From Dysgonomonas hofstadii (lineage in GTDB: Bacteria; Bacteroidota; Bacteroidia; Bacteroidales; Dysgonomonadaceae): DNA of 64,000 bases. The first letter of the stretch is position 1. The number at the start of each line of letters is the position of its first letter. This document shows positions 24,702-27,709 of the stretch, piece by piece. The translations under genes were made by a program, and so were the position numbers. The stretch lies in NCBI RefSeq assembly GCF_014196915.1, contig NZ_JACIEP010000011.1, positions 62,001 through 126,000 of the forward strand, in the 5' to 3' direction. The notes beneath the pieces are model-generated. The model made no database searches. It worked only from the letters and a program-made list of their open reading frames with translations, and was not told the DNA's origin.

Positions 24702-27109
<2,408 letters not shown>

Positions 27110-27156
27110 TCCTCTGATTAATGCCAATCAGTAGTTGAAATTATGATTGTAATGAA

Positions 27157-27626
27157 TAAATGTTCGTTTCTTTTCTACTACGTGCAATCGAAGATTGCTT
27201 GTGTTCCTTTTGCCCAAAGCCACAAAAGGAACCAAAAACGCTTTGGTGGCTCATCCTCCGTGCGACCCGTTACAGGCTCACGGGCTAAATGGAAAGATTG
27301 TCCTGTGGACGCTTTCCATTTCACGCCCCTTTCGCCTGACGGGTGCCCCGCACTACGGCTTAATGCCACCGGGCGAAGCCACCTCAAGGTAGGGTAATTC
27401 CCTGTCGTGCGTCAGCCTTCCGTGCATAGGTTCCTACGACGGGCACCTGTCCGGTGAAGACGGCGTGAAACCAAATATTGTCTGAGCCGCAGGCGAGTTT
27501 ATTTGGTTTAGCCGGCAAGCCGTTGACAGGTCGGCGGGGAACCAAGCACTAGCCTTTTGTTTCGTTTTGGGCAATGCCAAAATGAAAAACAAACCCGAAG
27601 GGCGCGTTAGTAAAAACGAACATTTA
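27157..27626. mobile_element. G+C-rich non-coding element with terminal inverted repeats (MITE-like)
   Basis: The ends TAAATGTTCGTTT (27157-27169) and its exact complement (27614-27626) form 13-bp inverted repeats, and similarity continues inward imperfectly (TACTACGTGC against TACTAACGCGC). Inside, each end has a hairpin: TTCCTTTTG/CAAAAGGAA near 27205-27232 and TTTCGTTTTGG/CCAAAATGAAA near 27560-27587. The interior is far richer in G+C than its surroundings (33 of 60 bases at 27241-27300). The open frames inside are short and composition-driven. It lies between GH97 and a terminator. No target duplication is clear. Confidence 0.6.
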
Positions 27627-27657
27627 AATCTAACTGCTGATTCGCATTATTAATAAT

Positions 27658-27685
27658 AAAGCCCGAACTTCAGTTCCGGGCTTTA
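27658..27685. terminator. Bidirectional terminator hairpin
   Basis: AAAGCCCG (27658-27665) pairs with CGGGCTTT (27678-27685), with inner AACT/AGTT pairs. It is 25 bases beyond the stop of the minus-strand gene at 27710 and can also end PUL transcription from the left. Confidence 0.8.
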
Positions 27686-27709
27686 CTCTAAATTATATCC
27701 TATTTATGA

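What the first reader, a model, noticed from the sequence alone, without database searches (positions are those of the whole stretch)
27157..27626. 470-bp G+C-rich, apparently non-coding element with terminal inverted repeats
It has 13-bp perfect inverted ends, imperfect extension inward, a hairpin just inside each end, and composition quite unlike the A+T-rich surroundings. It encodes no convincing protein, and the small frames in it look like artefacts. It may be a non-autonomous mobile element or a structured RNA whose folding, not coding, is conserved. Similar unannotated blocks seem to recur in Bacteroidota spacers, from memory.
Basis: partly seen in the sequence, partly recalled or inferred. 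Interest (0 to 1): 0.75.

Follow-up and report, generated by a model that had tools for sequence, protein, structure and literature searches.

The report
Hairpin-packed miniature transposon in Bacteroidota
This is one of about forty copies of a small protein-less jumping DNA element (a MITE) that appears to borrow the enzyme of an IS982-related insertion sequence found in sister species; unusually, its inside is one large folded hairpin whose base pairing is kept as copies diverge, equally on both DNA strands.

Summary
The element runs 27121-27647 (527 bp), bounded by ATGC[CG]AATCAGTAGTT-type inverted repeats and an imperfect 5-bp target duplication (GATTA/TATTA). The genome holds about 40 places; of 34 end-defined copies, 12 have exact and 24 have <=1-mismatch 5-bp duplications (shuffled means 1.6 and 6.8). 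All 39 copies checked are intergenic; the three ORFs tested are broken by stops in a third or more of copies. The same ends and 5-bp duplication flank intact 303-aa IS982-related transposases in other genomes of the family, one in the same genus, so this is a MITE of that IS group. The window's own genome lacks such a transposase. The exact end motif occurs across Bacteroidota; the interior was found only within the family. The interior is a branched foldback with strong covariation (48 of 97 pairs change on both sides). Unlike RNase P, G-U and A-C intermediates are equally rare and both strands fold equally well. That argues against a one-strand structured RNA and for a DNA hairpin, two-way transcription, or copying between arms or copies. 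Function of the foldback is unproven.

The parts
27121..27647 (.). complete MITE (527 bp), ATGCC...CGCAT
   Evidence: outer ends defined by multicopy comparison
27116..27120 (.). left target-site duplication GATTA
   Evidence: 5-bp duplication statistics; 4/5 match at this copy
27648..27652 (.). right target-site duplication TATTA
27121..27136 (+). left terminal inverted repeat ATGCCAATCAGTAGTT ('A' type end, with ATGATTGTAA inside it)
   Evidence: same motif ends autonomous IS982-related elements
27632..27647 (-). right terminal inverted repeat, reverse complement ATGCGAATCAGCAGTT ('B' type end)
   Evidence: poorly conserved between copies
27614..27626 (-). right arm of the inner inverted repeat
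27184..27198 (.). small hairpin GCAATC-GAA-GATTGC just inside the left end
   Evidence: alignment columns 63-75, 100% paired
27203..27232 (.). second left hairpin GTTCCTTTTG...CAAAAGGAAC; arms covary (CATTCTTTTG/CAAAAGAATG, CATCCTTTTT/AAAAAGGATG, CTTACTTTTG/CAAAAGTAAG)
27233..27559 (.). G+C-rich branched foldback core with long-range helices
27560..27587 (.). right hairpin TTTCGTTTTGGGCAATGCCAAAATGAAA
   Evidence: helix 18, 95% paired
27594..27602 (.). small hairpin CCC-GAA-GGG just inside the right end
   Evidence: sequence

Best explanation
The block is a copy of a MITE family. SHOWN: about 40 places in this genome; conserved 16-bp terminal inverted repeats; 5-bp duplicated targets of the form NANTN; intergenic insertion; no conserved coding frame; autonomous elements (1,064-1,065 bp, 303-aa transposase related to IS982) with the same terminal repeat and same-length duplication in sister genomes, one in the same genus. 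INFERRED: the IS982-related transposase recognises the ends in trans, moves the element and duplicates 5 bp; the family spread while such a transposase was resident (copies up to 97% alike to this one) and is stranded now, since this genome has no intact close relative of that enzyme. The interior is a branched foldback whose pairing is kept strand-symmetrically. I think it most likely that this is a property of the DNA: palindromic arms homogenised by hairpin-templated copying or by exchange of whole hairpin modules between copies, perhaps with some benefit to the element as an extruded hairpin. The confidence given is for the MITE identity and mover; the account of the foldback is much less certain (see rivals).
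For: Copy number and identity; outer ends; 5-bp duplication 12/34 exact and 24/34 within one mismatch against shuffled means 1.6 and 6.8, with clear agreement above chance at length 5 only; end-only mini versions of 46-70 bp; IS982-related autonomous elements with the same ends and exact 5-bp duplications TAATT, TAATT, ATATA, TACTA at L136, L137, L138, L142; no such enzyme in the window's genome, whose one good IS982 hit has different ends, ACCCGTAGTGCATTT; 39 of 39 copies intergenic; broken frames; covariation; strand symmetry with RNase P control; both-side changes about as common as one-side changes at 90-94% identity, against 0.36 for RNase P; interior flips against its asymmetric ends.
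Against: No clean empty site was found: downstream gene order differs in the 11 relatives examined, none of which shows an element right after the upstream gene. A subfamily (L016, L019, L020, L024) has the same interior but other ends (GGTCRTTTT...) with no clear duplication, so IS982-type ends are not the only way the interior moves. Transposase scores (109-118 bits) fall below the NCBIfam IS982 cut-off of 130. Mobilisation in trans was not tested.
Confidence: 0.9

Rival explanations
1. A structured non-coding RNA (one-strand product) that happens to be dispersed; folding of the transcript is what is conserved.
For: Strong fold (z -9.6) and covariation.
Against: In the 66 pairs predicted on both strands, 12 G-U and 10 A-C cells out of about 1,580; RNase P of the same genus gives 42 and 6. 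Consensus fold is as strong on the other strand (-87 and -97 kcal/mol; RNase P -126 and -66). No Rfam match near a gathering score. Interior orientation flips relative to its ends.
Confidence: 0.07
2. A transcript element selected in both orientations, for example a two-way terminator or stabiliser at gene ends.
For: Strand-symmetric strict Watson-Crick pairing is also what two-way RNA selection would give; all copies are intergenic.
Against: No excess between convergent genes: 16 tandem, 15 divergent, 8 convergent. By eye, no T-run follows the terminal hairpins outward on either strand; no terminator scan of the copies was run.
Confidence: 0.1
3. REP/BIME or IS200/IS605-type single-strand element moved by a Y1 transposase, which would explain hairpins near each end.
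For: Hairpins just inside both ends.
Against: Clear target duplications and terminal inverted repeats, which IS200/IS605 elements lack (established knowledge of that family); autonomous partners with an IS982-related transposase carry the same ends.
Confidence: 0.02
4. The compensatory pairing reflects selection for an extruded DNA hairpin or cruciform that the element needs, rather than arm-copying or exchange of hairpin modules between copies.
For: Long-range helices are kept as well as local hairpins (93.8-100% of cells paired); pairing persists among the nine most divergent copies, at about 64% mean identity. The same end motif in Dysgonomonas sp. 520 (L135) carries an unrelated but equally hairpin-rich interior (z -8.9).
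Against: Double changes come in blocks and with few intermediates even between close copies, as copying or recombination would give. Several other MITEs with these ends fold little better than their flanks (L120, L134, L106).
Confidence: 0.3

Closest known systems
MITECca01 of Cardinium cOegib (PMC9769881)
   Same: Bacteroidota MITE of about 240 bp attributed to an IS982-family parent, transposase gene lost, multicopy.
   Different: Parent ISCca4 is resident and intact there; no large foldback interior is described in the passages read. Its full end sequence was not compared.
Porphyromonas gingivalis MITEs (MITE239, MITE464/PgRS, MITE700, BrickBuilt; PMC4596501)
   Same: Bacteroidota MITEs matched by their ends to resident insertion sequences.
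   Different: Ends GAGAC... or ACGT..., parents given there as IS5 family; no match to ATGCSAATCAG.
IS982 family
   Same: Partner transposases match NF033520 over almost the full profile (E 2e-31 and 7e-34); element length about 1,065 bp.
   Different: Scores below the curated cut-off; ends ATGCG... instead of the ACCC... seen on the IS982 element in this very genome.
QMITE2 of Coxiella, as described in a review of prokaryotic MITEs (PMC10969869)
   Same: Short element with terminal repeats, duplications and a stable predicted transcript fold.
   Different: That review calls MITEs typically A+T-rich; this interior is G+C-rich against A+T-rich flanks, with tested covariation and tested strand symmetry.

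Membership tests
MITE | short, multicopy, no transposase | tested here: met
MITE | terminal inverted repeats shared by most copies | tested here: met
MITE | target-site duplication | tested here: met
   5 bp
MITE | ends match an autonomous element able to move it | tested here: met
   sequence match in sister genomes, not in own genome. Mobilisation itself not tested
IS982-derived MITE | parent transposase belongs to IS982 family | tested here: inconclusive
   best family is IS982, E 7e-34, but 117.6 bits against cut-off 130
IS982-derived MITE | interior derived from the parent IS | tested here: inconclusive
   by inspection of sequences only the ends look alike and the interior looks unrelated; no alignment of interior against the IS was run
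structured non-coding RNA | strand-specific covariation with G-U tolerance | tested here: not met
   with RNase P control
structured non-coding RNA | match to a described family | tested here: not met
REP/BIME or IS200/IS605 | no target duplication and no terminal inverted repeats | tested here: not met
REP/BIME or IS200/IS605 | Y1 (RAYT or TnpA) transposase partner | not tested
   Y1 transposases were not searched for

The most novel reading that the evidence does not exclude
The interior is a mobile folded-DNA module: a branched hairpin under selection as DNA, carried by at least two different kinds of transposon ends, which helps the element replicate, escape or invert, so that here DNA secondary structure covaries the way RNA structure does.
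Probability: 0.22. Interest if true: 0.75.

Novelty: new variant of a known kind. Interest (0 to 1): 0.48.

Why it matters
It gives a family-wide MITE with an identified likely enzyme source, and an example in which covariation, usually read as a sign of a functional RNA, is strand-symmetric and therefore probably not a one-strand RNA. Searches for new structured RNAs in Bacteroidota could trip over such elements; the G-U/A-C count used here separates them. It also makes testable whether palindromic DNA keeps its pairing by copying between arms or by selection.

Tried and rejected
Rfam search of the element: nothing near a gathering score. Pfam on the ORFs: nothing. Plasmid collection: no match; phage collection: only a 45-nt hairpin match in one microvirus, unexplained. 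Looking for the transposase beside single ends in the own genome and for paired ends 1-3 kb apart in two one-contig genomes: none; the partner came from a scan of the 22-mer end in named genomes. Empty site at the window locus: gene order changes at this boundary in relatives. A covariance model of the left hairpins in 394 other Bacteroidota genomes found nothing; that draw apparently held no other genome of the family, and only 12 candidates per genome were scored. A cruder neighbour-gene count mis-assigned this very copy and was replaced by a codon-usage version.

Full report
WHAT IS THERE. The window lies in a 5.0-Mb draft genome of 44 contigs. Its genus is very probably Dysgonomonas: contig C2 of the same-genus genome G012 has the same length, 442,970 bases, as NZ_JARXWN010000002.1 of Dysgonomonas sp. 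PF1-14. This is an inference from contig length, as is the family name Dysgonomonadaceae for what the tool calls f1.

TRUE ENDS. The shared outer end is ATGC[CG]AATCAGTAGTT; the pattern AATCAGTAGTTRRAWTT with up to two mismatches occurs 103 times in the genome against 10 for the reversed control. At this locus the element is 27121-27647. For 34 copies with both ends, the five bases outside left and right agree exactly in 12 and within one mismatch in 24, against shuffled means of 1.6 and 6.8; other lengths show no comparable agreement. The duplicated target reads roughly NANTN. Three copies consist of little more than the two ends (46, 55 and 70 bp between the terminal-repeat cores).

PARTNER. 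A scan of named genomes with the 22-base end found it in Dysgonomonas, several Bacteroides species, a Tannerella MAG and many Saprospiraceae MAG contigs. One hit, in a Bacteroidales MAG (L129), has two such ends 1,062 bp apart around a transposase reading frame carrying one in-frame stop near its end. Searching the family with that protein gave intact 303-aa versions in other genomes, one in the same genus (G011), with ATGCGAATCAGTAGTTGAAAC at one end and ATGCGAATCAGTATTTAA at the other; exact 5-bp duplications flank L136, L137, L138 and L142 (L142 itself has stops). The proteins match the IS982 model NF033520 over nearly its whole length but below its cut-off, so they are best called IS982-related. 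The window's genome has only a more typical IS982 transposase (224.7 bits) whose element ends in ACCCGTAGTGCATTT. Hence the MITE's likely mover is absent here now; movement in trans is inferred from matching ends and duplications, not shown.

INTERIOR. The 534-nt stretch 27119-27652 folds with z -9.6 on one strand and -8.2 on the other. In 24 copies, most of them from the window's own genome and the rest from three other genomes of the genus, 97 consensus pairs are formed in 97.4% of cells against 88.3% when partners are shuffled and 36-45% when slid; 48 pairs have changes on both sides against 22.5 shuffled. So pairing is conserved. Whether this is RNA was tested by counting, in pairs predicted on both strands, G-U against A-C cells: 12 and 10 for the element, 42 and 6 for RNase P in 21 genomes of the genus; fold strength on the two strands is -87 and -97 for the element and -126 and -66 for RNase P. 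The element's pairing is therefore strand-symmetric. A DNA hairpin, RNA selected in both orientations, or copying between arms all predict this; a one-strand RNA does not. The counts are small and copies are related, so this is a strong hint, not proof.

HOW THE PAIRING IS KEPT. Between copies 90-94% alike, both-side changes are as frequent as one-side changes (156 and 157), against 70 and 193 in RNase P, and they come in blocks (columns 438-443 between L016 and L020). At 94% identity and above the two do not differ (ratios 0.19 and 0.20). A roughly 30-base extension sits after TTTTG of the left hairpin in L024 and at the mirrored place of the right hairpin in L007 and L015. The asymmetric ends (A and B) occur in both arrangements around the interior: BA 12, AB 7, BB 5, never AA. 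I read these as signs of arm-copying, exchange of hairpin modules between copies, and inversion; selection for the fold is not excluded, and relatedness and recombination among copies were not modelled.

CONTEXT. All 39 copies examined are intergenic: 16 tandem, 15 divergent, 8 convergent, which gives no support to a terminator role. Relatives of the element by blast were found in 17 of 25 genomes of the genus and in 6 of 15 genera of the family.

VERDICT. An IS982-related MITE family with an unusual, strand-symmetrically covarying foldback interior: new variant of a known kind. Six searches of the held paper library found no description of this family, but most subscription journals and ISfinder were not searchable.

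Noticed in passing
L016, L019, L020, L024 (G000 C13:73553, C11:36074, C6:274234, C5:127682): Four copies carry the same interior but lack the AATCAGTAGTT ends; they end in GGTCRTTTT...AAAYGACC or similar with no convincing target duplication. Possibly a second kind of mover for the same interior.
   Followed up: partly
MT135430.1 (L098) record 29-71; window 27544-27588: A microvirus record from a porcine source shares a 45-nt hairpin (93%) with the element's right part, outside its annotated genes. An exact scan of the hairpin core in viral contigs gave six other contigs, not inspected.
   Followed up: partly
L135 4733-5022 (Dysgonomonas sp. 520): A 290-bp element with the same ends whose interior is a string of unrelated, near-perfect hairpins (DNA fold z -8.9).
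   Followed up: partly
L057 1459-2245 (G000 C24): One short copy sits shortly downstream of the RNase P RNA gene (match 25956-26311; element from about 26383).
   Followed up: no
window 27656-27687: A G+C-rich inverted repeat, probably the ordinary terminator between the convergent genes, lies just outside the element; it falls within the weak sub-threshold Rfam match to Thr_leader.
   Followed up: no
L120 1065-1194 (Acidobacteria MAG MWYZ01000086.1): A 130-bp element with exact copies of the end motif on both sides, in a contig assigned to Acidobacteria; transfer or mis-binning not resolved.
   Followed up: no
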